NCBI RefSeq assembly: GCF_031679605.1
Contig: NZ_CP117522.1
Coordinates: 9,486,001-9,550,000 of the forward strand
DNA from: Streptomyces luomodiensis
Lineage (GTDB): Bacteria; Actinomycetota; Actinomycetes; Streptomycetales; Streptomycetaceae
Length of the DNA stretch: 64,000 bases
Direction of reading: 5' to 3'
Shown here: positions 1-16,556 of the stretch, one piece after another
Numbering within the stretch: the first letter of the stretch is position 1
How the letters are laid out: every line of letters starts with the position of its first letter
Position numbers and translations under genes: made by a program
The notes under the pieces: generated by a model
The model's input: only the letters and a program-made list of their open reading frames with translations
Told to the model about the DNA's origin: nothing
Database searches by the model: none

Positions 1-1698
1 GCCGGCCTGGTGGCGCCCCAGCTCCTGGGGCGACTGGTCCAGAACGCCGGGAACGACCCGGACTCCATCACCCCGGCCGTGCTGCTGATCTGCGGGGCCG
101 TCGTCGCGCAGTCGTTCTTCACCTGGCTGGCGATCCCCGCCTCGCTGCGGCTGGCCGAGAAGGTTCTCGCCGACCTGCGCGAGGAGTTCATCGACCGGGT
201 GCTCGAACTGCCCCCGCACACCGTGGAGAAGGAGGGGACCGGCGAACTGGTCACCCGCACCACCCGGGACGTCGACGTGCTGGCGACCACCGTCCGCCTC
301 GCCGTCCCCGACACGCTGGTGGCCTTCTCCACGGTCCTGCTCACCCTCGGCGCCGTCGTCCTGACCTCCCCCGTCCTCGTCCTGCCCTGCCTGGTGGCCG
401 TCCCGGTGCTGTGGATCTCCACCCGCTGGTACCTGCGCCGGGCCCGCGCCGGGTATCTGCGGGCCGGCGCCTCCTACGCGCGGCTCACCGGCGGACTCGG
501 CGAGACCGTCGACGGCGCCCGCACCGTCGACGCGCTGCGACTGGGTCCGCACCGGCTGCGCAGGGTCGCGGAGGACATCGCCGAGTCCTACGCGGCGGAA
601 CGCCGCACCCTGTACCTGCGCAGCGTCTACCTGCCCATCGCGGACACCGCGTACATGCTGCCCCTGGTGGCGACCCTGCTGATCGGCGGGCTGCTCCACC
701 TCGACGGCCGTGTGGACCTCGCGGCCGTGACCGCGGTCAGTCTGTATGCGCAGCAGATCATCGGGCCGGTGGACCGGCTGCTGTTCTGGATGGACGAACT
801 CCAGGTGGGCGGAGCGTCGTTCGCGCGCATCCTCGGTGTGCACGAGGCCGCGGGGGAACGGCGGCCGGAGAGCGGCACACCGGCCTCGCAGGACACCGGC
901 GAGACGGACATCGTCCTCAAGGGCGTACGGCACGCCTACCGAGCGGGCCAGGACGTCCTGCACGGCATCGACCTGGCCGTGGCACCCGGTGAGCGGGTCG
1001 CCGTCGTCGGTCCGTCCGGTGCGGGCAAGAGCACGCTGGGCCGGCTGCTCGCCGGGGTCCACGCGCCGAGGACGGGCAGCGTGTCCATCGGCGGCACCGA
1101 CCTGCGCGACCTCCCCCTGGACCAACTCCGCGGCAGCATCGTCCTCGTCACCCAGGAGCACCACGTCTTCCGGGGCACCCTCCGCGACAACCTCCTCATC
1201 GCCCGCCCCGCCGCCGACGACGACGCACTGCGGACGGCTCTGACCGCCGTCGGCGCCTGGGAGTGGGCCGCCGGACTCGGACTGGACGCCGAGGTCGGCT
1301 CGGGCGCCCACGCCCTCACCCCGGGCCAGGCCCAGCACCTCGCACTCGCCCGGCTGGTCCTCGCCGACCCGCGGGCCGTCGTCCTGGACGAGGCGACCTC
1401 CCTCCTGACGCCGCACACCGCCCGCCGCCTCGAGCGGTCGCTGGCCACGGTGCTGGAGGGCCGCACCGTCGTCGCGATGGCCCACCGCCTGCACACGGCG
1501 CACGACGCGGACCGGGTCGTGGTCATGGAGGACGGCCGCATCACGGAGGACGGCAGCCACGACGACCTGGTGCGACGCGGGGGTGCCTACGCGCGCCTGT
1601 GGCACTCCTGGCACGGGGACCGGCATCCGCCCAGGGCGGAAGCGGAGGGCGCACCGGTGCCGGAGACCCGAAACCGGACGACACGCCCCGGCGGCTGA
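1..1698 (+). CDS. ABC exporter, fused permease/ATPase (5' end outside window)
   Basis: Reading frame 1 is open from base 1, so the gene begins upstream; a GTG at base 10 is only an internal codon. What remains (about 565 aa) starts near the end of the first membrane helix (APQLLGRLV) and continues through the transmembrane domain to about residue 270, then a nucleotide-binding domain with Walker A GPSGAGKST, Q-loop VTQEHHVF, Walker B AVVLDEATS and H-loop AMAHRLH. The signature loop reads LTPGQ instead of LSGGQ, typical of one half of a heterodimeric exporter, so a partner gene probably lies upstream. It precedes the NRPS genes by 86 bp on the same strand. Export of, or self-resistance to, the cluster's peptide is inferred from position only. 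Confidence 0.9.
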   Translation, partial: AGLVAPQLLGRLVQNAGNDPDSITPAVLLICGAVVAQSFFTWLAIPASLRLAEKVLADLREEFIDRVLELPPHTVEKEGTGELVTRTTRDVDVLATTVRLAVPDTLVAFSTVLLTLGAVVLTSPVLVLPCLVAVPVLWISTRWYLRRARAGYLRAGASYARLTGGLGETVDGARTVDALRLGPHRLRRVAEDIAESYAAERRTLYLRSVYLPIADTAYMLPLVATLLIGGLLHLDGRVDLAAVTAVSLYAQQIIGPVDRLLFWMDELQVGGASFARILGVHEAAGERRPESGTPASQDTGETDIVLKGVRHAYRAGQDVLHGIDLAVAPGERVAVVGPSGAGKSTLGRLLAGVHAPRTGSVSIGGTDLRDLPLDQLRGSIVLVTQEHHVFRGTLRDNLLIARPAADDDALRTALTAVGAWEWAAGLGLDAEVGSGAHALTPGQAQHLALARLVLADPRAVVLDEATSLLTPHTARRLERSLATVLEGRTVVAMAHRLHTAHDADRVVVMEDGRITEDGSHDDLVRRGGAYARLWHSWHGDRHPPRAEAEGAPVPETRNRTTRPGG

Positions 1699-1784: not shown

Positions 1785-4274
1785 ATGCACGGCACCGATC
1801 CCGGCGGCCATGGCCGGGAGCATCCGGACGGCGATGCGGCTGGGCCCTGGCTCGCGACCGACCGGCACCGCTTCAACGCCCGGGAGCACACCCCCGACAG
1901 CGTGACCAGGACGCTCACCCCGGACACCGTCCGACGCCTGGCTGAGGGGAGCACCGCCGCGGACGTCCCCGGCCCGGTCACCCTCCTCACGGCCTGGACG
2001 GCCGTCCTCCACCGCCACACCCAGCAGCGCGACCTGCTCATCGGGCTGGACCCGGCGTCCTTCACGGACGCGGCCGCCCCGGCCGGAAACACACCGGACG
2101 CGGCCACCGTCCCGCTGCGCGTCCGGTTACGGCCCGACGCCGCCTTCGCCGACGAACGCGCCCGGATACACACCGCCGTCACCGAAGCCCTGGCCCGCGA
2201 CCCCGGCGGCACCCCCGCCACGGACCCCCGCGCGGTGGCCGGCCGCGCTCCCGCGCCCTCCCTCCGGCACGGCACCTGGGACGTCGCGCTCACCCTGGAC
2301 AGCGGCCCGGTCCACACCCACCTGACCCTGCACTACAACGCGAGCCTGTTCACCCGGGCCACGGCCCAATGGATCCTCGGGCACTGCGCGACCCTGCTCA
2401 CCGCGGCCGTGGCCACCCCCGGAACCCCGGTGCGCGAACTGCCCGTCCAGGACGAACCGGCGCCCGCCCCCTGGCGGTTGCCCGTCCCCGACGGCTACCG
2501 TCCACCCGAGCCCGCCCGCCGCGGCGAAGGACTCGTCGACCGCTTCCGCCGCACCGCGGCCGCCCACCCCGCCCGACTCGCGGTCACCGGCCCCCAGGGC
2601 AGCCTGACCTACGCGGAACTGGACCGGGTCAGCGACACCGTGGCCCGCCGTCTGCGCCGCACGGCCGGTCCCGGCGACCGGGTGGCCCTGCTGTACGGAC
2701 ATGACGTGGGCGCGGTCGCCGCGATCTGGGCGGTGCTCAAGACCGGCGCCGCCTACGTCCCCCTCGACCCACGCCAGCCGGACGGACGGCTCACCCGACT
2801 GCTCACCGACGCCGACTGCACCACGCTCGTCTGCGACCCCGCCCTCGCCGACCGGGCCGGGAGCCTGGCACGCGGCGCCCGGACCGTCCCGGCCGATCCC
2901 TTCGACATCGCCGTGACGTCCCCGGCCCCGCCCGAGGCGCCGACCCCCGGCGACCCGGACGCGCCCGCCTATCTGCTGCACACCTCCGGATCCACCGGCC
3001 GCCCCAAAGCGGTCGTGCAGAGCCACGCCAACGTGCTCGCCCACACCCTCGCCTACGCGGACCGGCTGCGCATCGGCCCGCGCGACCACATCCCGCTGCT
3101 GGCCCGCTACACCTTCGACGCCGCCGTGATGGACCTGTACGCGGCCCTCCTCACCGGCGCCACCCTGCACGTCGAGGACCCGGTGGCGACAGCCCCCGAA
3201 CTGCGCGAGCGGCTGAGGCGCGCCGCCACGACCGTCCTGCACACGACCCCCACCCTCTTCCGGCACCTCGTGGGCGACCTGCCGGAGGAAGGCGGACCGG
3301 ACCCGGCCTTCGCCTCGGTACGCGCGGTCGTCCTCGGCGGTGAGGAGGCCGGCCAGCACGACCTGCGCCGCTTCCTCGCCGCCTTCGGCCGCAACGCCGC
3401 CCTGGTGAACGGGCTCGGCCCCACCGAGTGCACGCTCATCGCCCAGTACCTGGCGGGCGCGACCGACCTCGGCGGGACGGCACTTCCCGTAGGCCACCCC
3501 GTCGAGGGCATCTCCCTGCGCCTCCTCGACGAGGAGGGCCGCGGCACCGAACTCCTCGGCGAACTGGAGGTGCGCGGCGAGCGGGTGGCCCACGGCTACT
3601 GGAACGAGCCGGACGCCACGGCCGCGGCCTTCGGCACCGGTGCGGACGGCACCCGCCACTACCGCACCGGTGATCTGGCCCGCCGCCGCGCCGACGGCGC
3701 CCTGGTCTTCGCCGGACGCAAGGACCGGCAGATCAAACTGCGCGGACACCGGATCGAACCCGGGGAGATCGAGGCCGCGCTGCGCTCCCACCCCACCGTC
3801 GCCGAGGCCGTGGTGGCGGTCGACACCCGCGCCCCGGCCCCCCGGCTGGTCGGCTACGTCACCCCCGCCACCGGATTCCCACCGGACACCGGGGAACTGC
3901 TCGCCTACCTCGCCCGGACCCTGCCCGACCACGCGGTGCCCTGGCGGATCGTCGCCCTCGACCGGCTGCCGCTCGGCCCGACCGGCAAGGTCGACCGCGC
4001 CCGGCTGCCCGCCCCCGGGGAACTGCCCTCCGACGCGGCGGCCGCACCCACCACCCCGCTGGAGCGCACGGTGGCCCAGCTGTGGTGCCGGGTCCTCGGC
4101 ACCGACTCCGCCGACCTGCACGGCAACTTCATGGCGGCGGGCGGAGACTCGGTGCGGCTGCTGACCCTGCTGGGCGATGTCCGGCGCGAACTCGACGCGG
4201 AGGTGCCCCTGTTGGAGTTCCTCGCCGCCCCGACCATCGACACCCTGGTCAAGCTGATCGAACGGGAGACCTGA
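1785..4274 (+). CDS. NRPS: partial condensation domain - adenylation - PCP (829 aa)
   Basis: The ATG at 1785 is chosen because GAGG lies 8 nt upstream; the frame is open further upstream but overlaps the ABC gene. Residues about 20-225 resemble only the C-terminal half of a condensation domain and contain no HHxxxDG. Residues about 240-735 form a complete adenylation domain: HTSGSTGRPK near 398, FDAAVMD (Asp235 equivalent, so an alpha-amino acid is likely), GPTE, YRTGDL and the catalytic Lys in GPTGKVDR. A PCP follows with GGDS near residue 788. My by-eye ten-residue code reads D-A-M-H-V-G-G-L-I(-K); I cannot assign a substrate. Codon 115 is TTA (2127-2129), so translation may depend on the bldA tRNA. 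The stop overlaps the next start as TGATG, so the two genes are translationally coupled. Confidence 0.93.
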   Translation: MHGTDPGGHGREHPDGDAAGPWLATDRHRFNAREHTPDSVTRTLTPDTVRRLAEGSTAADVPGPVTLLTAWTAVLHRHTQQRDLLIGLDPASFTDAAAPAGNTPDAATVPLRVRLRPDAAFADERARIHTAVTEALARDPGGTPATDPRAVAGRAPAPSLRHGTWDVALTLDSGPVHTHLTLHYNASLFTRATAQWILGHCATLLTAAVATPGTPVRELPVQDEPAPAPWRLPVPDGYRPPEPARRGEGLVDRFRRTAAAHPARLAVTGPQGSLTYAELDRVSDTVARRLRRTAGPGDRVALLYGHDVGAVAAIWAVLKTGAAYVPLDPRQPDGRLTRLLTDADCTTLVCDPALADRAGSLARGARTVPADPFDIAVTSPAPPEAPTPGDPDAPAYLLHTSGSTGRPKAVVQSHANVLAHTLAYADRLRIGPRDHIPLLARYTFDAAVMDLYAALLTGATLHVEDPVATAPELRERLRRAATTVLHTTPTLFRHLVGDLPEEGGPDPAFASVRAVVLGGEEAGQHDLRRFLAAFGRNAALVNGLGPTECTLIAQYLAGATDLGGTALPVGHPVEGISLRLLDEEGRGTELLGELEVRGERVAHGYWNEPDATAAAFGTGADGTRHYRTGDLARRRADGALVFAGRKDRQIKLRGHRIEPGEIEAALRSHPTVAEAVVAVDTRAPAPRLVGYVTPATGFPPDTGELLAYLARTLPDHAVPWRIVALDRLPLGPTGKVDRARLPAPGELPSDAAAAPTTPLERTVAQLWCRVLGTDSADLHGNFMAAGGDSVRLLTLLGDVRRELDAEVPLLEFLAAPTIDTLVKLIERET

Positions 4275-5656
4275 TGCTGATCCTGCCCGCCGACCGCGCC
4301 AAGGCCCCCGCGTCCGGCACCGGACACCCCCGCGCCGCCCGGATCCTCATCGGCAACGACTTCAGCGAGGACGTACGGACCGACCGGGGCTGGACCGGCT
4401 GGTGGGTCCAGCGCCTGGTGTGGTTCGCGGAACCGGGCGACATCCTGGTCCTGCCGGTCCGCCCGGAGGAGGCGTTCGTGGAGTACGTCACCTCCCTCAC
4501 CGGCACCCCACCGGACTCCCTCACCATCGTCGTCCCGCCCGCGCACGCCGGCAGCGAGGGGACCCTCTCCCCGGGCCGGCTCGCCGACCCCCGGTTCGCG
4601 CGGATGCTCGATGAGGCCATCGGGGAGCGGGAGGTGACCCAGGTGTCGGCGCTGTGGCCGGACACCGCCGTCGCACGGCTCGCCCGCACCCTCGGCGCCA
4701 CCGGGGCGACCCCCGGGCACGGCTTCATCGACCAGGCCGGCGGTGTGATGGTCAACAGCAAGTCCGCGTTCCGCACCATCGCGGCGGGCGCCGGAGTGCC
4801 GCTGCCGCCGGGAGCCGTCGGCATCAGCCCGGAGGCGGCGGAGGAGTCGGTGTGGGAACTCCTCACGGGCGGCCCCGTGGTGGTCAAGCACGACTTCCTC
4901 TCCGGCGGGCGTGGTAACGAGATCCTCACCAGGGGCGAGCCGTTCCGGCCCATCGGCGCCCGGCGCGTGGTGCGCGTCTCCAGCCGCGAGGAGGTGCGTT
5001 CCTACCTGGGACAGCAGTGGGAGTGGCTGACGGCGGGCGGCCGCGGCCGGCCCGTCGTGGAGCGGTACGTCCGCGACAGCTCGGCCTTCTTCGTGGAGTT
5101 CCTCGTCACCGACGACGGTGTACGGCTCACCGGACACGGGGAACTTTTGTCCGCGCCCTACGCCGTGGGCCAGATCATGCCGTCGCAGGGACTGGAACCG
5201 GAGGTACTGGAGCGCATCGTCGACGGGGGACGGCGGCTGGCGCAGGCGCTGCACGCCATCGGCTACCGGGGAATCCTGGGTCCGGACACCATCGTGACGC
5301 CCGAGCGGGACGTTCTGTTCACGGAGTACAACGGCCGCGTCACCGGCTCCACGCACATCTACGGCCGGATCGGGGCGCTCGTCGTGGGCGAGGGCTTCGG
5401 CCGGGACCGGGTGATCCTGGAGCGGGTGTGGCCGGAGGGCTGGTCCACCCCGTCCTTCCCGGCCACCCGGGAGGCGCTGGAGAAGGCCGGACTCGGCTAC
5501 GACCCGGTCACCCGGACCGGCGTGGTGCTCACCAACGCGTTCGACGGCACCAACGGTGTCATGTACTGCGTGGTGGCCGAGGACCTGACCGCCGCCTGGG
5601 CCCGCGACCGCGCACTGGAGCCCCTGTTCGCCGCCGGGAGCCGGCAGCCGGCCTGA
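4274..5656 (+). CDS. PGM1-type ATP-grasp peptide ligase (460 aa)
   Basis: Start ATG shares one base with the upstream NRPS stop (TGATG) and has GGGAG 5 nt upstream. The layout fits the preATP-grasp/ATP-grasp family of peptide ligases typified by pheganomycin PGM1: an N-terminal preATP-grasp Rossmann part (RILIGNDFSEDV), a central ATP-grasp with NSKSAFR and VVVKHDFLSGGRGN, and a late metal-binding strand FTEYNGRVTGS supplying Glu/Asn/Arg. Family members activate a carboxylate as acyl phosphate and join it to an amine, giving an amide bond. Its place inside an NRPS operon, right after a module lacking a full condensation domain, suggests it makes one amide bond of the product off-template. Family assignment is from motif memory; substrates are unknown. 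Confidence 0.85.
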   Translation: MLILPADRAKAPASGTGHPRAARILIGNDFSEDVRTDRGWTGWWVQRLVWFAEPGDILVLPVRPEEAFVEYVTSLTGTPPDSLTIVVPPAHAGSEGTLSPGRLADPRFARMLDEAIGEREVTQVSALWPDTAVARLARTLGATGATPGHGFIDQAGGVMVNSKSAFRTIAAGAGVPLPPGAVGISPEAAEESVWELLTGGPVVVKHDFLSGGRGNEILTRGEPFRPIGARRVVRVSSREEVRSYLGQQWEWLTAGGRGRPVVERYVRDSSAFFVEFLVTDDGVRLTGHGELLSAPYAVGQIMPSQGLEPEVLERIVDGGRRLAQALHAIGYRGILGPDTIVTPERDVLFTEYNGRVTGSTHIYGRIGALVVGEGFGRDRVILERVWPEGWSTPSFPATREALEKAGLGYDPVTRTGVVLTNAFDGTNGVMYCVVAEDLTAAWARDRALEPLFAAGSRQPA

Positions 5657-5725
5657 ACACCGGCCACCGCACCAGAACTACCCGCAGCCAGTACCCGACC
5701 CCCAGCAGAGAGTGAGGCACGCACG

Positions 5726-5965
5726 ATGTCGGACCTGAAGGTCACGTTGGCGGATCTGTGGCGGGAACTCCTCAAGATCGAGGAGGTGACGGAGGACACG
5801 GACTTCTTCGACGCCGGCGGCACCTCGATCGTGGCCGTGTACCTGGCAGCCGAGATCCAGGAGAGGTTCGGGGCGGCGGTGGACGCCGTCGATGTGGTGA
5901 CGTACCCCCGCTTCGCCGACCTCTCGGGGCTGGTCGAAGAGAAGCTGGCCGGCACCGCGCTCTGA
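5726..5965 (+). CDS. Free-standing peptidyl/acyl carrier protein (79 aa)
   Basis: The protein is the length of one carrier domain. The phosphopantetheine site is DAGGTSIV, with the modified Ser at about residue 35, and the helices before and after match carrier folds (TDFFDAGG, then LAAEIQERFG). GTGAGG precedes the ATG by about 8 nt. It ends the + strand half of the cluster, 85 bp before the convergent NRPS genes. It could be loaded in trans by the A-PCP-C or A-PCP proteins or hold an intermediate for the ATP-grasp ligase or a tailoring step; the sequence does not decide. No phosphopantetheinyl transferase is present in the window. Confidence 0.88.
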   Translation: MSDLKVTLADLWRELLKIEEVTEDTDFFDAGGTSIVAVYLAAEIQERFGAAVDAVDVVTYPRFADLSGLVEEKLAGTAL

Positions 5966-6003
5966 CCGCGCCTGCCCCGGCGACCGGCCCCCGGCCCCGC
6001 CGC

Positions 6004-6020
6004 CCCCGCGACCAGCGGGG
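6004..6020. terminator. Small GC hairpin between convergent NRPS operons
   Basis: CCCCGC and GCGGGG form a 6-bp stem around a 5-nt loop in the 84-bp gap between two converging transcription units. There is no T-tract, which is common for Streptomyces terminators. It is a weak candidate for a bidirectional terminator. Confidence 0.35.
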
Positions 6021-6049
6021 CGACGGAGCCGAGGGCGTCCGTGCGGACC

Positions 6050-9000
6050 TCAGTCCAAGGCGGCCAGCTCCTCGACCGAGCACAGCACCTCGCCCGCCAG
6101 GGCGGCGGCCGTCGCGTCGTCAAGGCCGTCCACGCGCCATTGGGTGTTCAGCCGCCAGCCGCCGTGCACGTCCGGAACCGCCTCGACGGTCAGCTCGCGC
6201 GCCGTGGCGGGCGCCGGTACCCGCACCGACCGCACGGTCAGCCCAGGGGCGAACCGCCCGTGCGGCGGCCGCCGTTGGACCACGGACCACACCTGGAAGA
6301 ACGGATGCCGGTCCCGCGGTGGCGCGAGTCGCCGCACCAGCTCGTCGAACGGGACACGCCCGTGCGCCAGCCCCGTCACCACGGTCCGCGCGACCTGGTC
6401 GAGCAGCGTGGCGTCCGGCGCGTCGCGCGCACCGCGCACCGGGACCACCAGCGGATTGACGAAGTACCCCACGACCGGCTCCAGTTCGGGCGCGAACCGG
6501 CCGTCCGTCACCGTGCCCACCGTGACATCGGCGGCGTCGAAGGTCCGGGCGAGGCCCCGGCCGACCGCCGCGACCAGCCCCGCCACCGCGGGGCCGCCGC
6601 GCAGCGCGGACGCCCGGGTGAGGCGCTCCACCGTGTCCCGGGGCACATACCCGGCCGACTCGGCGGCGGGCGCCTCGCCCTCGCCGGTGGGCGCGGGCAG
6701 CACGGACGTCGGCAACTGGGCCAACTCCTGCTCCCAGAACGGCAGCTCCTCCTCGATGCGGCGGGGGAGGTGGCGGTGTTCCCAGCGTGCGTAGTCGGGA
6801 TAGCCGGGGGCCGGGGGCGGTCCGTCCTCCGGGGCGGACCCGGTGTGCCAGGAGTAGAACAGGCCGAGATCGCGCAGCAGCACCGACTCGGACCAGCCGT
6901 CGAAGGCGATGTGATGGAGGTGCAGGCACAACAGGTGCCGTGCCGGTCCCAGCTCACACAGCCGGGCCCGGATCGGCAGGTCCTCCTCCAGCCGGAACGG
7001 CAGCCGCCACCAGTCCTCGGTCACCGCCCGCGCGGCCTGTGCGGCCTCCGCGCCGACCGGGCGCGGCACCCGCTCCAGCGGGACCCGGACGAGGGCGGCC
7101 GGCCGGACGCGCTGCTCGGGCAGCTCGTCCCGCCAGGGGTGGACCGTGCGCAACACCGGGTGACGGACGACGACGTCGTGCAGCGCGCGGTGCAGGGCTT
7201 CGGTGTCCAGGGGGCCGTCGAGGACGTAGGCGAGTACGAGCGCGTTGTCCGCGGCCCCCGGCGCGGCCCCCTCCGCCATCCAGAACCGCTGCTGTGCGCG
7301 GGTCAGCGGCAGCGGGCCCGGGGCGGAGACCGGCTCCGGCTCCGGCTCCAGGGGAACGCCGGCGTCGGCGGGCGGGGCGGTCGCGCCGTGCCCGCGCAGC
7401 GCGGCCACCGAGCGCAGCCGGTAGACGTCCGCGACGGTGATCCGCGCGCGGAGCAGACGGCTGCTGCGGGCGGCGAGGCGGACCACGTCGAGGGAGGTCG
7501 CCCCGGCCGCGATGACGTCGTCGTCCTCCCCCAGCGCGGGAGCGCCGAGCAGCTGAGCCGCCGCCGTCAGCAGCCCCGGGACCTCTGGACCCGGACGGGC
7601 GGGCGCCGGACGGGCGGCCGTGAGCGTGTCGGTGATCAGGCGGGCCGCGGCGGCCCGGTCCGCCTTGCCGGTGGCGCCCAGCGGCAGCTGGGCGGTGTGG
7701 GTCAGCACGGCCGGGACCATCGCGTCCAGCAGCGTGCGCGCCGCGATGCTCCGCAACTCCTCGTCCGGCACCGGCGCACCGGACACCGTCGTGTAGAGGA
7801 CGGCCAGTCCGGGGCGGTCCGGAGCCGTCTCGGCCAGGACCGCGCAGCAGGACGCCACGTCCGGGTGGCGCTCCAGCACGGCCTCCACCTCGCCGGGCTC
7901 GACGCGGACCCCCCGGACCTTGAACTGCTGGTCGGCACGGCCCCGGTAGCGCAGCAGCCCGTCCGCGTCCCGGGTGGCGAGGTCGCCGGTGCGGTAGTGC
8001 CGCACACCGTCCAGGGTCACGAAGCGCCGCGCGGTCTCCTCGGCGTCGCCCAGGTAGCCGAGGGACAGTCCGTCACCACTGAGGGCGATCTCACCGTCCC
8101 CCGGGCCCGTACGGACCTCGCCCTCGGGGCCGAGCAGGACCACGCCGGTGCGGGGCACGGGGCGGCCGATGGGGATCTCGGTGCTGTCCGGGGCGACGTC
8201 GGACGACCGGACCGGATGACAGGTGGCGAAGATCGTGCTCTCCACGGGGCCGTAGCCGTTGACCAGCCGCAGCCGGGGAAAGCGATCGAGCAACTGGCGC
8301 GCGTGCCGCACGGAGACCCGCTCGCCGCCCACCAGCACCAGCCGTGCCGGCCCGACGAGCTCGGGGACCTCCTCCACGAGGACGTTGAACAACGAACTGG
8401 TCAGCCACAAGGTGTTGACGCCGTGGCCGAGGGCCCGCCGCAGCCCGTCGGCGTCCAGGGCGGGCGCGCCCCGGTCCAGCAGGACCGCGCTGCCGCCGTT
8501 CAGCAGCGGCCCCCACAGTTCGAGCGAGAAGGCGTCCCAGGGCTGCGGCGCGGCCTGGAGGAACACCGTGTCCGAGTCGAGCGGGATCTCCGGGCAGCCC
8601 ACCAGCGTGCGCACGGTGCCCCGGTGCGGGGACAGGACGCCCTTGGGACGGCCCGTCGAGCCGGAGGTGTAGAACACACACGCCGCCTGTGTGCCGTCGC
8701 TGTAGGGCGGCGGTGGCGGTCCGTCGGCCCCGGACACCAGGTCGGTCCAGGCGACCACCGGGGATCCGCCCACCTCCGTGCCCGGCCGGTCCCCGACGAC
8801 GAGGGGCGCTCCGCAGCGCCGTACCGCGTCCGCCGTGCGCTCATGCGGCCAGGCCGGGTCCATCGCGATGTAGGCGGCGCCCGCGGTCAGCACGCCGAGC
8901 AGCACGGCCACGAACTCGGGCGAACGGGCCATCAGCACGGGCACGTACCCGCCCGGACCGACGCCACGGGCCCGGAGCCCGGCGGCGACCGAGCCGGCCA

Positions 9001-9157
9001 GCCCGGTCAGCTCGCCGTACCGCAGCGTCTCCGCACCCTGCCGTACCGCGAGGGCCCCGGGGTCGCGCTCGGCGTGCCGGGCCACGACCCGTTCGATGCG
9101 CTCGCCGTGGACGTAGGGGGAGTTCTCGGCCGCGAGAGCGCGGGCAGGCGCGGTCAC
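6050..9157 (-). CDS. NRPS: adenylation - PCP - condensation (1035 aa)
   Basis: The start is GTG at 9157, overlapping the upstream stop as GTGA; the longer open frame would run into the upstream PCP. Residues about 15-515 are an adenylation domain (FYTSGSTGRPKGV near 162, WDAFSLELW, GYGPVE, YRTGDL, GATGKADR). The specificity residues I read are D-A-L-W-L-G-G-I-F, close to known valine-type codes such as DALWLGGTF. A PCP with GATS replacing GGHS sits near 550, and a full condensation domain with HHIAFDG near 747 ends the protein. A-PCP-C order means the terminal C domain joins this module's residue to an acceptor on another protein, plausibly the N-terminal PCP-C protein of the same operon. It is the last gene of the - strand operon. 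Confidence 0.93.
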   Translation of the reverse strand: MTAPARALAAENSPYVHGERIERVVARHAERDPGALAVRQGAETLRYGELTGLAGSVAAGLRARGVGPGGYVPVLMARSPEFVAVLLGVLTAGAAYIAMDPAWPHERTADAVRRCGAPLVVGDRPGTEVGGSPVVAWTDLVSGADGPPPPPYSDGTQAACVFYTSGSTGRPKGVLSPHRGTVRTLVGCPEIPLDSDTVFLQAAPQPWDAFSLELWGPLLNGGSAVLLDRGAPALDADGLRRALGHGVNTLWLTSSLFNVLVEEVPELVGPARLVLVGGERVSVRHARQLLDRFPRLRLVNGYGPVESTIFATCHPVRSSDVAPDSTEIPIGRPVPRTGVVLLGPEGEVRTGPGDGEIALSGDGLSLGYLGDAEETARRFVTLDGVRHYRTGDLATRDADGLLRYRGRADQQFKVRGVRVEPGEVEAVLERHPDVASCCAVLAETAPDRPGLAVLYTTVSGAPVPDEELRSIAARTLLDAMVPAVLTHTAQLPLGATGKADRAAAARLITDTLTAARPAPARPGPEVPGLLTAAAQLLGAPALGEDDDVIAAGATSLDVVRLAARSSRLLRARITVADVYRLRSVAALRGHGATAPPADAGVPLEPEPEPVSAPGPLPLTRAQQRFWMAEGAAPGAADNALVLAYVLDGPLDTEALHRALHDVVVRHPVLRTVHPWRDELPEQRVRPAALVRVPLERVPRPVGAEAAQAARAVTEDWWRLPFRLEEDLPIRARLCELGPARHLLCLHLHHIAFDGWSESVLLRDLGLFYSWHTGSAPEDGPPPAPGYPDYARWEHRHLPRRIEEELPFWEQELAQLPTSVLPAPTGEGEAPAAESAGYVPRDTVERLTRASALRGGPAVAGLVAAVGRGLARTFDAADVTVGTVTDGRFAPELEPVVGYFVNPLVVPVRGARDAPDATLLDQVARTVVTGLAHGRVPFDELVRRLAPPRDRHPFFQVWSVVQRRPPHGRFAPGLTVRSVRVPAPATARELTVEAVPDVHGGWRLNTQWRVDGLDDATAAALAGEVLCSVEELAALD

Positions 9158-10947
9158 CGTGCCGCGCCTTCGGTCGCGGTCGCGTCCACCAGCGCGGCCA
9201 GGTCGGCGAGGACGGACGTGCGGACCAGCGAACGGTATTCCAGGGTGACTCCCCGCTCCCGCTCGATGCGGCGCTGCATGCGGAAGGCGAGCAGCGAGTG
9301 GCCGCCGAGGGCGAAGAAGTCGTCCCGGACACCGACCTCCTCCACGCCGAGCAGGGACCGCCACAGCCCGACCAGATAGCGCTCGGTGTCTGTCGCCGGG
9401 GCGGCGTCCTGCTGGCCCGCTTCCCGGGTCAGCAGGGCGCGCAGGGCAGCCGTGTCGCGCTTGCCGTGGTGGGTGGCCGGGATCTCCGGCAGCACCACGA
9501 TACGGCTGGGGACCAGGTAGTGCGGCAGCCGCTCCCGGGCGAAGCCGAGGAGAGCGCTCACCGGAACGGGTTCGTCGAGCACGGCGAAGGCCACCAGATG
9601 GCGGTCCTCGCCCTCACCGGAGGCGAGGACGACCGCGTCGTGCACGAGCGGGTGGTGCCGCAGCGAGCGGGCCACCTCGGCGGGCTCCACGCGGTAGCCG
9701 CGGATCTTGACCTGATCGTCGGCCCGGCCCAGGAACTCCAGTACCCCGTCCGCTCGGCGGCGGGCCAGATCGCCGGTCCGGTAGAGGCGTCGGGGGCCGT
9801 CCGGGAGCGGGCTCGGCACGAACGCGCGGTCGGTGCGGTCCGGACGGCCGGGGACGGACAGATAGCCGCGGCCCACACCGGGCCCGCCGATGTGGATCTC
9901 GCCCGCCGCACCCGGCGGGACCGGCCGCCGGTCCGGGCCGAGCAGATGCACCGTCACCCCGTCCAGGGGACGCCCGATGGGAATGCTGTCCGCGCGGGTG
10001 TCGTCGAGGGTGACGCGGTGCGCGGTGCAGGCGGTGGTGGTCTCGGCCGGCCCGTACAGGTTGAACAGCTCCCCGCGGAACGCGCCCGACAGCAACCGCG
10101 CACAGGCGGCGGGCCGTAGGACATCCCCCCCGACGTGGAGGAGGCGCAGCGGCGCGAAGGCGTCCCGGTCCTCCCGCACCACCTGGTTGACGACCATGGT
10201 GGGCACCAGCATGGCGGTGATGCCGCGCCGCTCCAGCGCGGCCCGGAAGCCCGCCGCCAGCAGATCGGGCACCGGCGGCAGGACGACGACCTGCCCGCCG
10301 CGCGCCAGCGTCGCCCACGTCTCGAAGTGGAAGGCGTCGAACGACAGGCTGGAGATCTGCCCGGTGCGGTCCTCGGGCCGCAGCGGCGGAAGGGCCGGAT
10401 TCACGGCGAAGGAGACGATGTTGCGGTGTTCCAGGACGACCGCCTTGGGCGTGCCGGAGGATCCCGAGGTGAACAGCACACTGGCCGCGCCGTCCGGACG
10501 GGCCAGGTCGCCGGGGCCGGGTCCGGAGCCGTCCGCCGGTGGCACCGGCAGCTCCAGGGTGTCCAGGGGGAGGCCACCGAGTGCCGCGCCCGGACCCGGC
10601 CGGGTGAGGACGATCCGCACGCCGCTGTGCGTCAGCATCAGATCGCGGCGGGCGTCCGGGTAGCGGGTGTCGACGGCCACATAGGCGGCGCCCGCTTTGA
10701 GGATCCCGAGGATCGCGGCGAAAACCTCGACACCGCGGTCGAGATGGAGCCCGACCCGGTCCTCGGGCCGCACCCCGCGGGCCCGCAGCGCGGAGGCGAT
10801 GTCATCGGAGCGGGCGTCCAACTCGGCGTAGGTGAACGAGGCGTGGTCGTCGGTCACGGCGGTCAGGTGCGGGAAGCGGCTGACGCTGCGGGCGAAGAGC
10901 CCGGTCAGGGTGGTCGGGTCCAGGGCGGGGCGGGGCGTGCTCGGCAT
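9154..10947 (-). CDS. NRPS: adenylation - PCP (597 aa)
   Basis: A two-domain loading-type or stand-alone module. The adenylation domain (about 10-500) shows LFTSGSSGTPKAV, SFDAFHFE, NLYGPAE, YRTGDLARR and the final Lys in HHGKRD, which departs from the usual TGK. The PCP (about 520-590) has LGGHSLL. My specificity read is D-A-F-M-H-G-L-T-A, which I cannot match to a known substrate; Asp235 indicates an amino acid. No condensation domain is attached, so it must start a chain or load a carrier in trans, for example the N-terminal PCP of the 1404-aa protein. It overlaps the downstream gene by 4 bp and lies 27 bp from the thioesterase-like gene. Confidence 0.92.
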   Translation of the reverse strand: MPSTPRPALDPTTLTGLFARSVSRFPHLTAVTDDHASFTYAELDARSDDIASALRARGVRPEDRVGLHLDRGVEVFAAILGILKAGAAYVAVDTRYPDARRDLMLTHSGVRIVLTRPGPGAALGGLPLDTLELPVPPADGSGPGPGDLARPDGAASVLFTSGSSGTPKAVVLEHRNIVSFAVNPALPPLRPEDRTGQISSLSFDAFHFETWATLARGGQVVVLPPVPDLLAAGFRAALERRGITAMLVPTMVVNQVVREDRDAFAPLRLLHVGGDVLRPAACARLLSGAFRGELFNLYGPAETTTACTAHRVTLDDTRADSIPIGRPLDGVTVHLLGPDRRPVPPGAAGEIHIGGPGVGRGYLSVPGRPDRTDRAFVPSPLPDGPRRLYRTGDLARRRADGVLEFLGRADDQVKIRGYRVEPAEVARSLRHHPLVHDAVVLASGEGEDRHLVAFAVLDEPVPVSALLGFARERLPHYLVPSRIVVLPEIPATHHGKRDTAALRALLTREAGQQDAAPATDTERYLVGLWRSLLGVEEVGVRDDFFALGGHSLLAFRMQRRIERERGVTLEYRSLVRTSVLADLAALVDATATEGAAR

Positions 10948-10974
10948 CGTGGTCTCCCGGTGGGGGCGGGTGTG

Positions 10975-11754
10975 TCAGCGTCCGGTGGTGTCGCGCAGGA
11001 AGGCGAGAACGGTCTCCCGGGCCCGCGCGGTGCCCGGCAGTCCGGCGCGGTCGGCGTCGACGGCCTCCGTGCGGGTGGCCGCACTGCCCGGCCAGTCCGC
11101 GCGGAACGGGTGGTCGCGGGAGACCAGGTGCAGCACCTCGCCGCCCCACGCGGGGGCGGTGCAGTTGTGCGCGGCGACGAGATGGGTGAGCCAGGCGACG
11201 TAGTGGTCCACCACGGGTGCGGCGGCCTCTTTAAGTTCCCGCTCCTCCGCTCCGTCCTCGGCGAGGGTCTCCATGACCCGGCGCAGCATCGCGTCGCGGA
11301 GCGTGGCGATGACGTACGACGGCCGGTCGCGCAGGGTGCCGGGGTCGAGAAGCGCCTCCAGTGTGCCAGGCCCCGGCAGGGGCCCGCCCGCGCCGGCGCC
11401 GAAGACCTCGAACACCGCCCGGCACTCCTCCGCCACGGACGCGGCGGTGCAGGGCGTGCTGTCGACGAGGACCACCGGGAGGACCACCCCGTGGTCCGCG
11501 GCGAGCCGTCCCGCCACCTCCTGCGCGAGGTGCCCCGCCATGCAGTAGCCGAGGATCCCGGCCAGCCGGTCCGGTTCGGCGCCGGACGCCTTGATGAGCG
11601 CCGCGGTGTGGGGACCGGCGTCCGGCTCGTCCGGGCTGCGGAGCTGGATCGGGTACCGCACATCGAAGCCGTGCTCCTCGAGGCGCAGGTCGAGAAGGCG
11701 TCCGGAGTCGCGCCTGCCGGGATAGTCGATCGCGATGAGCTGGCGGTCTGCCAT
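10975..11754 (-). CDS. Thioesterase-like alpha/beta hydrolase with Cys nucleophile (259 aa)
   Basis: The fold pattern and position are those of a type II or stand-alone NRPS thioesterase, but the nucleophile elbow is GYCMAG (Cys71) rather than GxSxG. The C-terminal segment where a GGH motif is expected reads DADRAGLPG, so I see no catalytic His at that place. In known NRPS thioesterase domains, Cys in place of Ser accompanies beta-lactone or beta-lactam forming release (obafluorin and sulfazecin systems), and loss of His would argue for an altered or non-hydrolytic role. It sits between the T-C-A-T-TE and A-PCP genes (57 and 27 bp gaps). Function is inferred; an editing role is the conservative alternative. 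Confidence 0.8.
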   Translation of the reverse strand: MADRQLIAIDYPGRRDSGRLLDLRLEEHGFDVRYPIQLRSPDEPDAGPHTAALIKASGAEPDRLAGILGYCMAGHLAQEVAGRLAADHGVVLPVVLVDSTPCTAASVAEECRAVFEVFGAGAGGPLPGPGTLEALLDPGTLRDRPSYVIATLRDAMLRRVMETLAEDGAEERELKEAAAPVVDHYVAWLTHLVAAHNCTAPAWGGEVLHLVSRDHPFRADWPGSAATRTEAVDADRAGLPGTARARETVLAFLRDTTGR

Positions 11755-11811
11755 CGGAGGGGAACCTTCCGTCGGCGCGGCGGCCGGGCGCGCCGCGCGG
11801 GGGCACGGGGG

Positions 11812-14800
11812 TCAGCCGGTCGCCCGCAGCCGGGCGGACAACAGGCGCAGGAGCGCGCCGGCCTGGGCGCGCAGGTAGAAGTGGCCGCCGGGGAACGTCT
11901 CGAAGGTCACGGGCGCGGAGCTGAGTTCGGCCCAGGCGGCCGTCCGCTCCGGGTCGAGGGTCGGGTCGTCGCGACCGGTGCACACCGTGACCGGCACGGT
12001 GAGCGGGGGCCGCGGCGGACAGGTGTAGGTCTCGGTCACCGCCGCGTCCGCCCGCAGCACCGGCAGCAGTGTCTGGAGCAGCTCGGGGGAGTCGAGCACG
12101 TCCGGCGGTGTGCCGTCGAGGCCGCGCAGGGCGCTGCGCAGGGCCTCGTCATCCAGGGTGTGGGCGGGCCGTGCGGGCAGGGCGCGACGGTGCGGGGCGT
12201 CGAGGCCGGAGACGAACAGGGCCTGCGGCCGGTGTCCGCGAGCGGTGAGCGCGTGGCTCAGCTCGAACGCGAGCAGGGCTCCCATGCTGTGCCCGAAGAG
12301 CCCGAAGGGCCGGTCGGCGAACGCGGGCAGGACGTCGGCCAGTTCCTCCGCGAGTTCCCGCGCGTCGTGGCGGGCCGGTTCCCTGAGACGGGCCTCCCGG
12401 CCCGGAAGGTGGACCGGGACCACCTCGACGTCCGCCGGGGCGAGCGCCCGCCAGTCACGGTAGGCGGAGGCGCCCCCGCCGGCGTGCGGCAGGCAGAACA
12501 GCAGCGGCCCCCGCCCGCCCGACGGTTCCGCCGTACCGAACCACCGCTGGACCGGGGTCCGCACCGGCGCGTGCGCGGGTGCGGACCCCGTGCCGGTGAG
12601 CGCGGCGCGGAGCCCTTCGGGAGTGGGCCGCTCGAACAGGACGCGCAGCGGCAGCGCGACGCCGAACGCGGCGCGCACCCGGGCGACCAGCCGGGTGGCG
12701 AGCAGCGAATGGCCGCCCAGGGCGAAGAAGTCGTCGTACCGGCCCACCCGAGGAAGGTCCAGCAGCTCCGCGAACAAGGCGCACAGCCGCGTCTCCTCGG
12801 CATCCCGCGGCGGGACGTAACTGTCACCCTCCGGCACCGGCGCGGGCGGCAGCGCGGCGCGGTCCACCTTGCCGTTGGCCGACAGCGGCAAGGCGTCGAG
12901 CGGGACGACGGCGGCGGGCACCATGGCGGACGGCAGCCGCCCGGCCAGCGCCGACCGCACGGCGTGCGGGTCGACCTCACCCGCCACGTACGCCACCAGC
13001 CGGGCCCCGCCCGGCCCGGAGCGGTCCGCGACCACCACCGCGTCCCGCACCCCGCTCAGGGTGCGTACGGCCGCCTCGACCTCGCCCGGCTCGATCCGCT
13101 GCCCACGGATCTTGACCTGGTGGTCACGGCGGCCGAGGAACTCCAACTGCCCGTCCCGCAGATACCGCACGACATCGCCGGTGCGGTACATCCGGGCACC
13201 CGGCACGTCATGGAACGGGTCGGGCGGGAACGCGGCGGCGGTACGCCGGGGATCGCCGAGGTAGCCCAGTCCCACCCCCATCCCCCCGACGTACAGCTCG
13301 CCCGGCACACCCACCGGGACCGGTTCGCACTCCTCGTCGAGGACGTAGAGCCGGGTGTTGCGCAGCGGCCGTCCGATCGGCACCCGGGCCCCGGCGAGCG
13401 GGGTGTCCTGGGCCAGGACGGCCTGAGCGACGTCGTCGGAACATTCGGCCGGACCGTAGGCGTTGACCAGCGGCACCCCGGGGAAGCGGGCGAACCAGCG
13501 CCTGCACAGATCCGGTGGCAGCGCCTCCCCGGTCACCATGAGCCGGCGCAGCCGGTTCGGATCCGGCGCGGAACCGAGGACGTCCCAGGCGTCGAGCGCG
13601 GCCCGCAGCAGCGACGGCACGACCTCCAGGAAGGTCGCCCCCTCCCGGGCGGCGGTCTCGAACAACTCCACCGGATCGGAGGCGATCGCGTCCGCCACCA
13701 CCAGGCTGCGGCCACCCACCACGAAGGCCACGAGGGTCTGCCAGACGGACACGTCGAAGGCCAGCCCCGCGTTCTGGACGACGGTGTCGGCCGCCGTCAG
13801 GTCCAACTCCTCGATCTCGGCGAGGAGATGGTTGTGCATCCCGAGCCGGTGGACGACGGCGCCCTTGGGCACCCCGGTGGAGCCGGAGGTGTGGATGACG
13901 TAGGCGGGGCTGTCGCCGTCGAACGCCGTCGGAGGCGGGTCCCCGGCCGGTGCGTGGGCCGGGTAGGGGCTGACGACGGTCAGTGGCCGTTCCGCCGCCT
14001 CGACGAGCCGGTGCGCCCGTGCGGTCGCGGCGGGTTCGGCCACGAGGAAGCGGGCGCCGCTGCGGGAGGCGATCCCGGCGGCCCGCGGCAACGGCATCGC
14101 CACATCCACCGGAACGAACGCCGCGCCCGTCGCGAGGATGCCGAGCACGGCCGTCGTCACGGCCGCACCGCGATCGCCGAGGACGAGCACCAGGTCGCCG
14201 GGCCCCACCCCGCGTCCCACGAGATCCCGGCGCAGTGCGTCGGCGCGCTGCCACAACCGGCGGTAGGTCAGGGACGTCGTCCGGTCCGTCAGGGCGACGG
14301 CGTCCGGAGTGACCTCGGCGAAGTGGCGCAGCCGCGTCACGACATCGGCGGTGGTGTTCTCGCGGTCGGTGGCGTTCCAGGTGACGAGCAGCTTCTCGCG
14401 ATCCGCTGCCGGGACGCGCAGCAGGGTGGACAGCCGGGCCCCGGGCCGGTGTGCGGCGCCCTCGCACAGGTGGAGGTACTCGTCGAGGACGGCCCGCGCG
14501 GTCTCCGGGTCGAAGAGATCGGTGGCGTACTCCAGGACCACCTCCAGGCCGTCACCCTCCGCCACGGTCAGCGTGAGATCGAATTTGGCGCTGCCGGACT
14601 CCAGCGTGAGGAGTTCCACGGTGAGGTCCCCCAGCCGGGTGGGGGGCGGAGGGGTGTTCTGGAGGGTGAACATGGCCTGGAAGAGCGGGTTCCGGGACAG
14701 GTCGCGTTCCGGTGCGAGCACCTCCACCAGCCGCTCGAAGGGCACATCTTGATGGTCGAAGGCGGCGAGGGCGGTGCGCGACACCTGGGTGAGCAGCCCG

Positions 14801-16026: not shown

Positions 16027-16495
16027 GGGGCGGCTCCATGGGAAGGCTGGGCAGGCGGCATGGCGAACCGGCCTGAAGGCGGGCAGGCGAAACACAGGCG
16101 CGCGCGGTGAGAACACGAGTCAGCGGGGGAAGCGTGACCTACACGTCGCCGACGCCTCTAGGAACGCGTGCGGCGGGCGCGCTCACGGAGCGCGATACGA
16201 CCTCGGGGGAGCGGGCGGGCGTCCGGTCCGTCAACAGCTTCCGTGGTCCGGACAGCGGACTGCCTCGGTGGAAAAGCGGTGGACACGGGGGAAAGGCCCG
16301 ACTCGCATGTTCCTCCCGACCTCGCTGATGGAAGACGTACGAACAATCGGCCGATCGCGGTCGACGGCGGTGCTGTGTCGCACACCTCCTTCATATATAC
16401 AACGAACTCCCTTGCCATAAACGGCACTTATGAGATCTCTCATGCCGCCACGGAACTGCTTGATGCGTGGTGTGGCGTGTGTTAGCCGATCACAT
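16027..16495. other. Intergenic region divergent between NRPS and nitrogen operons
   Basis: No convincing gene. It must carry the promoter of the leftward NRPS operon. The stretch 16385-16445 is notably A+T-rich for this genome and contains GAGATCTC (16430s) inside a wider CGGCA...TGCCG pair. An inverted repeat GTGTTA-N12-TAACAC lies at 16479-16502. CACATG occurs at 16491 and again at 16511. Small ORFs here have no family resemblance. Confidence 0.5.
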
Positions 16496-16533
16496 GTAAC
16501 ACCGCGGGAACACATGATAAAAGCCGCAGAAAC
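16496..16533 (+). promoter_or_regulatory. Candidate GlnR box upstream of biuret/allophanate operon
   Basis: Four 5-mers at an exact 11-bp period: GTAAC, GGAAC, TAAAA, GAAAC, each separated by 6 nt. The actinobacterial GlnR consensus is gTnAC-n6-GaAAC repeated; the first and fourth match fully and the second 4 of 5, while the third is poor. The box spans roughly -61 to -24 relative to the predicted leaderless start at 16557, a position suited to activation. Nitrogen control fits the operon's inferred function. GlnR binding is an inference. Confidence 0.5.
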
Positions 16534-16543
16534 GACGGTCCTC

Positions 16544-16549: not shown

Positions 16550-16556
16550 TCCCGCC

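What the first reader, a model, noticed from the sequence alone, without database searches (positions are those of the whole stretch)
1785..5965. PGM1-type ATP-grasp ligase embedded in an NRPS operon
The ligase gene is TGATG-coupled to an NRPS module and followed by a free carrier protein. PGM1-type ligases normally work off-template in pheganomycin-like pathways. Their tight coupling here suggests a hybrid logic where one amide bond is made by ATP-grasp chemistry and others by modular condensation. The order suggests the ligase substitutes for the missing condensation activity of the neighbouring module. I do not know a described cluster with exactly this gene set.
Basis: partly seen in the sequence, partly recalled or inferred. 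Interest (0 to 1): 0.75.

Follow-up and report, generated by a model that had tools for sequence, protein, structure and literature searches.

The report
Peptide ligase wired into modular synthetase
A soil bacterium carries a peptide-joining enzyme closely related to one that decorates a ribosome-made antibiotic, but here it is coupled to a carrier-protein assembly-line module in several related gene clusters, which suggests that the source of the peptide was swapped while the unusual aromatic cap was kept.

Summary
In detail: an NRPS protein (1785-4274), a PGM1-type ATP-grasp ligase (4274-5656, TGATG overlap) and a free carrier protein (5726-5965). The NRPS protein keeps only the C-terminal lobe of a condensation domain. 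Genes just upstream of the window (DpgA, DpgC, aminotransferase, P450, amidinotransferase, methyltransferase) mark a pheganomycin/resorcinomycin-type pathway to an amidino-dihydroxyphenylglycine cap. The ligase is 53% identical to PGM1. Pheganomycin-type clusters carry a small precursor-peptide gene beside the ligase; none was found in this clade. Instead the half-C-A-PCP gene overlaps the ligase gene in 7 of 7 clusters examined, its A pocket is nearly constant in 8 of 8, and these ligases form one supported clade. A ChlB3-like acyltransferase with a Cys/His/Asp triad goes with the adjacent pair. A second clade pairs a ligase with a degenerate A domain and intact carrier. Best reading: the ligase caps an amino acid held on a carrier, doing what the truncated condensation domain cannot; ligation on the carrier is inferred. 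I found no described cluster or product in open-licence papers.

The parts
1..1698 (+). ABC exporter half-transporter (second of two; begins at -116, upstream of the window); part of the shared pheganomycin-type gene set
   Evidence: ABC_membrane 95.5 bits and ABC_tran 90.3 bits; homologues in pheganomycin-type clusters
1785..4274 (+). half-C-A-PCP NRPS protein: C-terminal lobe of a condensation domain (about residues 30-225), A domain, PCP with GGDS serine
   Evidence: Pfam; half-C alignment and profile match; AlphaFold2 model with Foldseek hits to C domains; pocket letters DAMHVGGLIK
4272..4276 (+). TGATG stop/start overlap between the NRPS gene and the ligase gene
   Evidence: read directly; overlaps of 1, 1, 20, 7, 7 and 7 bases in six relatives, taking the start codon of the match
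4274..5656 (+). PGM1-type ATP-grasp peptide ligase, 460 aa
   Evidence: PF18604 + PF18105; 3wvq 456.8 bits; 52.7% identity to the 3wvq letters; K163, K205, E351, N353 among 85 columns invariant in 17 ligases
5726..5965 (+). free-standing peptidyl carrier protein, 79 aa
   Evidence: PP-binding 56.7 bits; GGTS serine in 7 of 7 (G000, G002, G003, G004, G005, G006, G541)
6050..9364 (-). NRPS protein A-PCP-C with intact HHIAFDG (longest ORF; the real start probably lies inside)
   Evidence: Pfam; motif; close homologue in G001 and G002 only among the compared clusters
9154..10947 (-). NRPS protein A-PCP
   Evidence: Pfam; close homologue in G001 and G002
10975..11754 (-). thioesterase/hydrolase-like protein, 259 aa; assignment by eye, no family match
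   Evidence: no Pfam or NCBIfam match at E 0.001; homologue in G001 and G002
11812..16116 (-). NRPS protein PCP-C-A-PCP-TE with intact HHIVFDG
   Evidence: Pfam; motif; 61.5% homologue in G002

Best explanation
This is the assembly core of a pheganomycin/resorcinomycin-type pathway in which the ribosomal precursor peptide has been replaced by an NRPS carrier system. Shown by sequence: genes for a dihydroxyphenylglycine-type cap (DpgA, DpgC, aminotransferase, P450, methyltransferase, amidinotransferase), a PGM1-type ligase with conserved ATP-grasp residues, a half-C-A-PCP protein whose gene overlaps the ligase gene, a free PCP and a Cys/His/Asp KASIII-like acyltransferase. Inferred: (1) the A domain loads one conserved amino acid X onto its PCP; (2) the ligase activates the free carboxylate of the amidino arylglycine cap with ATP and joins it to the amine of X while X sits on a carrier protein, so the ligase makes the bond that the truncated C domain cannot; (3) the ChlB3-like acyltransferase moves the chain between the module's PCP and the free PCP, or off it, where the FMN-type monooxygenase and small methyltransferase may act; (4) in this species the capped unit is extended by the NRPS proteins at 6050-16116 and released by the TE. 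Step 1 and the ligase chemistry are likely; ligation on the carrier (2) and the shuttle (3) are the least certain.
For: Cap genes: DpgA 628 bits (cut-off 425), DpgC 562 bits (cut-off 530), upstream of the window; amidinotransferase 164.8 bits to PDB 1bwd. The same set accompanies the ligase in G049, whose ligase is 96% identical to 3wvq and which has beside it a 38-codon gene with NVKDGPT and NVKDR stretches. Relatives of that gene lie beside the ligase in 5 clusters (G049, G009, G011; G342, G674) and in 0 of 8 half-C clusters (G000 over 104 kb, G002 over 21 kb, G003-G007 and G008a over 61 kb each); G541 has none in 60 kb. Half-C-associated ligases: 9 labelled rows, one change of the label, support 100/100, with 7 rows of unseen context inside the same clade. 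NRPS/ligase gene overlap in 7 of 7. A pocket DAMHVGG[LMV][IVA]K, eight of ten positions fixed in 8 of 8. Acyltransferase gene in 9 of 9 clusters with an A-PCP gene directly beside the ligase and enough flank, found in 0 of 15 others; C105/H253/D258 invariant in 8 of 8, same His-Asp spacing as ChlB3 His296/Asp301 (paper passages); top fold match ChlB3, E 3.7e-20. In G448a, G482a and G514 the A domain beside the ligase has lost core motifs while the PCP serine stays.
Against: No experiment and no known product. PGM1 itself was characterised with free peptides (recalled), and no ligase-carrier fusion was seen: the 120 homologues listed of 163 (length limit 0.55-1.75x) carry only ATP-grasp/PGM1 domains. 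In G007 and G008a the half-C-A-PCP gene lies about 5 kb from the ligase, without free PCP, acyltransferase or FMN monooxygenase. Cap genes are not universal in the clade: no amidinotransferase in 61 kb of G003 and G005; only a DpgA fragment and no DpgC or aminotransferase in G006; no P450 in G004; only part of DpgC in G541. Lack of the precursor gene is not special to the half-C clade: it was also not found in G008b, G010, G045, G062, G169 and G184, and the search sees only relatives of that one precursor. By sequence profile the acyltransferase ranks FabH 2ebd before ChlB3. The window's domain count does not close: cap plus four A-domain residues needs four bonds, but there are two full C domains and one ligase. 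Clusters of one clade are not independent. The A-domain substrate is unknown.
Confidence: 0.55

Rival explanations
1. The ligase caps a free amino acid or a peptide already released from the NRPS, as PGM1 caps ribosomal peptides; gene overlap reflects only co-regulation, and the half-C-A-PCP protein serves another step such as tailoring X.
For: PGM1 is the closest solved structure. The resorcinomycin producer S. roseoverticillatus (recalled) has a 52% relative, P0082, and resorcinomycin's partner is a single glycine (recalled). No ligase-carrier fusion among the 120 listed homologues. In G007/G008a the genes are about 5 kb apart.
Against: Overlap kept in 7 of 7 with differing lengths; near-constant A pocket although the other NRPS genes vary; intact PCP kept beside a degenerate A domain in the second clade.
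Confidence: 0.3
2. The free PCP is charged by the ligase itself: the ATP-grasp enzyme acylates the phosphopantetheine thiol with the cap, as recalled for BtrJ in butirosin biosynthesis, and a C domain then uses it as donor.
For: A free PCP gene follows the ligase in 6 clusters (G000, G004, G005, G006, G541 directly; G002 after one intervening reading frame). In the degenerate-A clade the adjacent PCP can hardly be charged by its own A domain.
Against: Untested; the acyltransferase offers another way to charge the PCP. My paper search for BtrJ gave only three listings, none opened.
Confidence: 0.12
3. The A domain loads the arylglycine cap itself, for tailoring on the carrier, and the ligase later joins the released cap to a peptide.
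For: His at pocket position 278 and Gly at 301 also occur in recalled Hpg/Dpg codes (not tested here). Four A domains with two full C domains plus one ligase would then close as a tetrapeptide.
Against: Pheganomycin-type loci carry the same cap genes without any match to this A-PCP in the fetched stretches (G049, G169, G184, G045).
Confidence: 0.1

Closest known systems
Pheganomycin pathway (PGM1, Streptomyces cirratus; Noike et al. 2015, recalled; seen only as cited in PMC8939145 and PMC13417212)
   Same: PGM1-type ligase and the same cap gene set: methyltransferase, two ABC genes, P450, aminotransferase, DpgC, DpgA, amidinotransferase
   Different: Pheganomycin-type loci carry a small precursor peptide gene beside the ligase and, in the fetched stretches of G049, G009, G011 and G674, no half-C-A-PCP, free PCP or acyltransferase homologue near it. 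PMC8939145 counts an NRPS gene in the pheganomycin cluster (passage); our NRPS queries found none in 60 kb of G049 at E 1e-5
Resorcinomycin ligase (P0082, listed as 'Amino acid ligase', Streptomyces roseoverticillatus)
   Same: PGM1-type ligase family, 52% identical to the window's
   Different: Joins the cap to a single glycine (recalled); outside the half-C clade on the tree; its gene surroundings were not seen
Biarylitide clusters with Pgm1 ligase homologues (PMC13417212, passages)
   Same: PGM1-type ligase recruited to another peptide-making system (47 clusters reported)
   Different: Partner there is a ribosomal precursor peptide, not an NRPS carrier module
AFC-BC11 assembly in Burkholderia (PMC12186527, passages)
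   Same: Dissociated NRPS with one free carrier protein and KASIII-like acyltransferases, two of them with a Cys/His/Asp triad, one shown to store peptidyl thioesters
   Different: No occurrence of 'ATP-grasp' in its text and no arylglycine cap
ChlB3, chlorothricin (PMC9573744, abstract and passages)
   Same: KASIII-like fold and Cys/His/Asp triad; moves an acyl group from one carrier to a free carrier
   Different: Works on 6-methylsalicylate in a polyketide pathway; 20-22% identity in the fold matches
Dapdiamide and butirosin pathways (recalled)
   Same: ATP-grasp amide ligases working alongside carrier proteins
   Different: Other ligase families: the only NCBIfam models our ligase matched, BesA (30.5 bits, cut-off 750) and LdmS (19.9 bits, cut-off 475), lie far below their cut-offs

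Membership tests
PGM1-type ATP-grasp peptide ligase | Pre-ATP-grasp domain PF18604 plus PGM1_C PF18105 over their cut-offs | tested here: met
   100.7 and 47.9 bits
PGM1-type ATP-grasp peptide ligase | Full-length similarity to the solved PGM1 | tested here: met
   456.8 bits over residues 23-454
PGM1-type ATP-grasp peptide ligase | Conserved ATP-grasp residues | tested here: met
   K163, K205, E351, N353 among 85 columns invariant in 17 ligases; their roles are assigned from general ATP-grasp knowledge, not tested
PGM1-type ATP-grasp peptide ligase | Joins an amidino arylglycine to the N-terminus of a peptide | not testable with these tools
   needs an enzyme assay
Pheganomycin-type cluster | Genes for the amidino dihydroxyphenylglycine cap | tested here: met
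   DpgA, DpgC over cut-off; amidinotransferase; aminotransferase, P450, methyltransferase homologous to those of G049
Pheganomycin-type cluster | Ribosomal precursor peptide gene with NVKD cores | tested here: not met
   no hit in 104 kb around the locus, while found in G049, G009 and G011 by the same search; a precursor of unrelated sequence would be missed
Complete NRPS C-A-PCP module | Condensation domain with HHxxxDG | tested here: not met
   only the C-terminal lobe; no HHxxxD before the A domain
Complete NRPS C-A-PCP module | A domain and PCP intact | tested here: met
   Pfam scores; GPTE, TGD and GGDS motifs; alignment
KASIII-like acyltransferase of ChlB3/CerJ type (L003:8749-9639) | Cys/His/Asp triad | tested here: met
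   C105, H253, D258 invariant in 8 of 8; spacing as in ChlB3
KASIII-like acyltransferase of ChlB3/CerJ type (L003:8749-9639) | Moves acyl groups between carrier proteins | not testable with these tools
   needs an assay; only a fold match to ChlB3

The most novel reading that the evidence does not exclude
A PGM1-type ATP-grasp ligase has replaced the condensation domain of an NRPS module: it acylates the amine of an aminoacyl thioester held on the neighbouring carrier protein, the remaining half condensation domain serves only as a structural platform, and a KASIII-like acyltransferase passes the capped unit to a free carrier. In another lineage of the family the A domain has decayed to a scaffold for the carrier. 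The same cap and ligase type are thus fed by ribosomal peptides in one branch and by carrier-bound amino acids in another.
Probability: 0.4. Interest if true: 0.75.

Novelty: new variant of a known kind. Interest (0 to 1): 0.6.

Why it matters
If true, one ligase family and one unusual aromatic cap can be fed by either ribosomal or nonribosomal peptide supply, and an ATP-grasp enzyme can stand in for a condensation domain on a carrier protein. That would give a simple two-protein system (A-PCP plus ligase) for attaching modified arylglycines to chosen amino acids, and it points to a family of uncharacterised natural products in Streptomyces and Kitasatospora. The degenerate-A lineage is a natural experiment on what the ligase needs from its partner.

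Tried and rejected
Fusion of ligase and PCP in G002: suggested by a 1344-aa open frame, rejected on reading it; the ligase ends with its own stop and the open stretch lies upstream. A hidden first half of the C domain: rejected, because only 86 bases separate the upstream ABC gene's stop (1698) from the NRPS start (1785), and no HHxxxD lies before the A domain in 9 of 9 open frames (one HHNVLE in G005 lies inside its A domain). A pheganomycin-like precursor in this cluster: not found. The large NRPS proteins as the ligase's conserved partner: rejected; but G005 has NRPS modules of 37-42% identity beside its ABC genes and G003 one of 34% about 25 kb away, and G448a, G482a and G514 also have NRPS matches of 41-43%. 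DpgD as a separate gene: no match over its cut-off in the whole genome. Substrate of the A domain from its ten pocket letters: no confident answer; the landmarks and comparison codes were recalled. Frequency of half-C elsewhere: the protein search scored only 7,995 candidates and returned three proteins, the query included, missing relatives that I had in hand, so I make no claim. Known product: searches listed no paper that I recognised as describing this gene set; I opened only PMC8939145, PMC13417212, PMC12186527 and PMC9573744, and the library lacks most subscription papers.

Rows left out: the tree holds 50 ligases (36 of the 55 loci, G448b, G482b, 3wvq, P0082 and ten more of the 120 proteins listed); G011 is not on it. 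The label counts on that tree ignore the 32 unlabelled rows, 7 of which lie inside the half-C clade. G002 (short contig) and G001 (flank not fetched) are left out of the acyltransferase count.
Full report
What is there. The window lies at 9,486,001-9,550,000 of a 10.04-Mb single-contig genome; near-identical loci (99%) are in Streptomyces sp. S465. Window 1785-4274 encodes an NRPS protein, 4274-5656 a ligase and 5726-5965 a free carrier protein, all on the plus strand, and the first two genes share TGATG at 4272-4276. The ligase matches the two Pfam domains of PGM1 over their cut-offs and the solved PGM1, 3wvq, with 456.8 bits over residues 23-454 of 460; identity to the 3wvq letters is 52.7%. 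K163, K205, E351 and N353 are among 85 columns invariant in 17 aligned ligases, so nothing suggests a dead enzyme.

The condensation domain is half. Pfam sees only positions 211-280 of the Condensation profile, just under its cut-off. A profile of eight half-C regions aligns with a profile of four C-domain proteins from its column 223 onward, which is residue 205 of the first of them, past its HHxxxD at residues 135-140 (probability 97.1, E 6.1e-11). No HHxxxD lies before the A domain in 9 of 9 open frames. An AlphaFold2 model of the region (mean pLDDT 75.9, with low-confidence ends) has NRPS condensation-type domains as its best fold matches (best E 2.0e-11). The upstream neighbour ends 86 bases before the gene, so no hidden first half is present.

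The surroundings decide what pathway this is. The cap genes sit just outside the window, upstream (locus L003; window position = L003 position minus 20000): DpgA (14294-15436, 628 bits, cut-off 425) and DpgC (12202-13824, 562 bits, cut-off 530), an aminotransferase, a P450 and a methyltransferase, and a 382-aa protein without family match that aligns with inosamine-phosphate amidinotransferase 1bwd (164.8 bits). Further upstream lie a KASIII-like protein, a small methyltransferase, an alkanesulfonate-monooxygenase-like flavin enzyme and a diaminobutyrate transaminase. This is the gene set that I would expect for an N-amidino dihydroxyphenylglycine cap as in pheganomycin and resorcinomycin (structures recalled; pheganomycin's cap and its gene types also in the passages).

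Comparison with pheganomycin. Genome G049 carries a ligase 96% identical to 3wvq with the same cap gene set, and next to it a 38-codon gene with NVKDGPT and NVKDR stretches. Relatives of that gene lie beside the ligase in G009 and G011 and in G342 and G674. None was found in 0 of 8 half-C clusters (G000 over 104 kb, G002 over 21 kb, six others over 61 kb each), nor in 60 kb of G541. It was also not found in six clusters without the half-C gene (G008b, G010, G045, G062, G169, G184), so its absence alone is not special, and precursors of other sequence would be missed. Still, where one branch has a gene for a ribosomal peptide beside the ligase, the other has an NRPS carrier module. One published passage counts an NRPS gene in the pheganomycin cluster (PMC8939145); our NRPS queries found none within 60 kb of G049. 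I could not reconcile this because the pheganomycin paper is not in the library.

The coupled pair is conserved. Of 55 ligase loci gathered and examined with about 1.5-kb flanks, 8 have the half-C-A-PCP gene directly upstream (two of them from one species), 3 have an A-PCP-like gene directly downstream, and 44 have neither; two of these 44 (L039, L081) have the half-C-A-PCP gene about 5 kb away. The 10 loci of 60% or more identity to our ligase are these 8 and 2. Over the phylum, 2 of 396 genomes had a ligase at E 1e-90, one of them the window's own, so the group is rare outside the family. The NRPS and ligase genes overlap in 7 of 7 clusters, by 1, 1, 1, 20, 7, 7 and 7 bases. On a tree of 50 ligases the nine half-C-associated ones need a single change of the label, support 100/100; so do the five precursor-associated rows (3wvq included) and the three degenerate-A ones; seven rows of unseen context lie inside the half-C clade. 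The ten pocket letters of the A domain read DAMHVGG[LMV][IVA]K in 8 of 8, and G541 agrees at the positions checked; positions were set on recalled landmarks.

What else travels with it. Of nine half-C clusters (G000, G002-G006, G541, G007, G008a), the MT2 methyltransferase and the two ABC genes are in 9 of 9, a free PCP in 7 of 9 (not G007, G008a), and the amidinotransferase in 7 of 9 (not G003, G005). Of the eight with enough flank (G002 left out), the KASIII-like gene, the flavin monooxygenase and the small methyltransferase are each in 6 of 8 (not G007, G008a); DpgA is complete in 7 of 8 (a fragment in G006), DpgC in 6 of 8 (partial in G541, none in G006), the aminotransferase in 7 of 8 (not G006) and the P450 at 60% or more in 7 of 8 (not G004). 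The large NRPS proteins at 6050-16116 have close homologues only in G001 and G002. In G541 and G004 their only matches are the half-C-A-PCP and free PCP genes; G006 has besides only 25-30% matches about 25 kb away; G005 has modules of 37-42% and G003 one of 34%. G004 and G006 instead have a C-domain-like protein and two L-amino-acid-ligase-type proteins (family scan on G004's copies), G005 the C-like protein and an ATP-grasp protein, and G007 and G008a IucA/IucC synthetases.

The acyltransferase. In 9 of 9 clusters with an A-PCP gene directly beside the ligase and enough flank, the KASIII-like gene is present (G000, G003, G004, G005, G006, G541, G448a, G482a, G514); it was found in 0 of 15 others (G007, G008a, G008b, G009, G010, G011, G045, G049, G062, G169, G184, G448b, G458, G482b, G674). 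These fall in few clades and the flanks differ (20-61 kb), so this is an association, not a probability. Its C105, H253 and D258 are invariant in 8 of 8, the spacing equals that of ChlB3's His296 and Asp301 (PMC9573744, passages), and its AlphaFold2 model (mean pLDDT 84.7) matches ChlB3 best (E 3.7e-20), closely followed by FabH enzymes; by sequence profile FabH 2ebd ranks first and ChlB3 second. ChlB3 moves an acyl group to a free carrier; AfcL, another such enzyme, stores peptidyl thioesters in a dissociated NRPS (PMC12186527, passages).

A second lineage. In G448a, G482a and G514 a PGM1-type ligase is followed by a protein whose A domain has lost the GPTE and RTGD regions and all or most of the ATP-site motif (G514 keeps an altered copy), while the PCP and its serine stay. 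No DpgA or DpgC was found in these 20-kb stretches. The carrier, rather than adenylation, thus seems to be what the ligase gene stays with.

Mechanism. I take the following as most likely. The A domain charges its PCP with one conserved amino acid; the ligase activates the cap's carboxylate with ATP and joins it to that amino acid's amine; the acyltransferase shifts the product or its precursor to the free PCP; in this species the NRPS proteins downstream extend and release it. The ligase chemistry follows from PGM1; ligation on a carrier is inference from the gene overlap, the constant pocket, the lost C lobe and the degenerate-A lineage. The main rival is that the ligase works on a free amino acid or released peptide. 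The domain count does not settle it: cap plus four A-domain residues would need four bonds, and two full C domains plus one ligase give three.

Verdict. It is a new variant of a known kind: a pheganomycin-type ligase and cap pathway joined to NRPS carriers. I recognised no description of such a cluster in the listings, which cover open-licence papers only.

Noticed in passing
L007 (G000:C1:5928000-5947000), ligase match at 9247-10458: A second, distant PGM1-type protein (31-33% identity; PGM1_C 32.2 bits) in the same genome, also among NRPS genes (A-PCP match at 4989-6731, a larger NRPS match at 15144-18884) with a P450-like match at 3652-4581.
   Followed up: partly
L104:10869-12350, L105:10518-12140, L106:9117-10778: Degenerate A domain with intact PCP directly beside a PGM1-type ligase, amidinotransferase and acyltransferase; two of these genomes (G448, G482) hold a second PGM1 locus with Dpg genes.
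   Followed up: partly
L011:11763-16261: Downstream of the free PCP in a Kitasatospora: a C-domain-like protein followed by two L-amino-acid-ligase-type ATP-grasp proteins.
   Followed up: partly
L014 and L015, about 11-21 kb, and L031: PGM1 plus half-C-A-PCP beside IucA/IucC synthetases, a diaminobutyrate transaminase, a PLP decarboxylase and a C-domain protein (scanned from one or other of the two genomes); looks like a siderophore-type cluster.
   Followed up: partly
L003:3639-4913: EctB-like diaminobutyrate transaminase (641 bits, cut-off 552) upstream of the cluster; may supply diaminobutyrate to the NRPS or belong to ectoine synthesis.
   Followed up: no
L009, about 11400-11950: Between ligase and PCP in G002 a reading frame that looks by eye like a flavin reductase, which would suit the FMN-type monooxygenase of these clusters.
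   Followed up: no
L019 with L035 (G011): The pheganomycin-type cluster of Streptomyces sp. I6 shows several cap and ligase genes in pieces, perhaps sequencing errors or decay.
   Followed up: no
L013 and L027 (G006, Kitasatospora humi): Half-C cluster with only a DpgA fragment and no DpgC or aminotransferase match in 61 kb; possibly a decayed or rewired cap pathway.
   Followed up: no
window 17355-21235: Cytosine/purine-type permease, isochorismatase-family protein and amidase with allophanate hydrolase C-terminal domain behind a GntR regulator; looks like a separate nitrogen-catabolism operon.
   Followed up: no
window 29282-50514: Catabolic gene block: transporter, MmgE/PrpD, hydantoinase B/oxoprolinase, acyl-CoA ligase, thiolase-like, pyruvate-ferredoxin-oxidoreductase-like with DUF6537, CoA-transferase, aldehyde dehydrogenase.
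   Followed up: no
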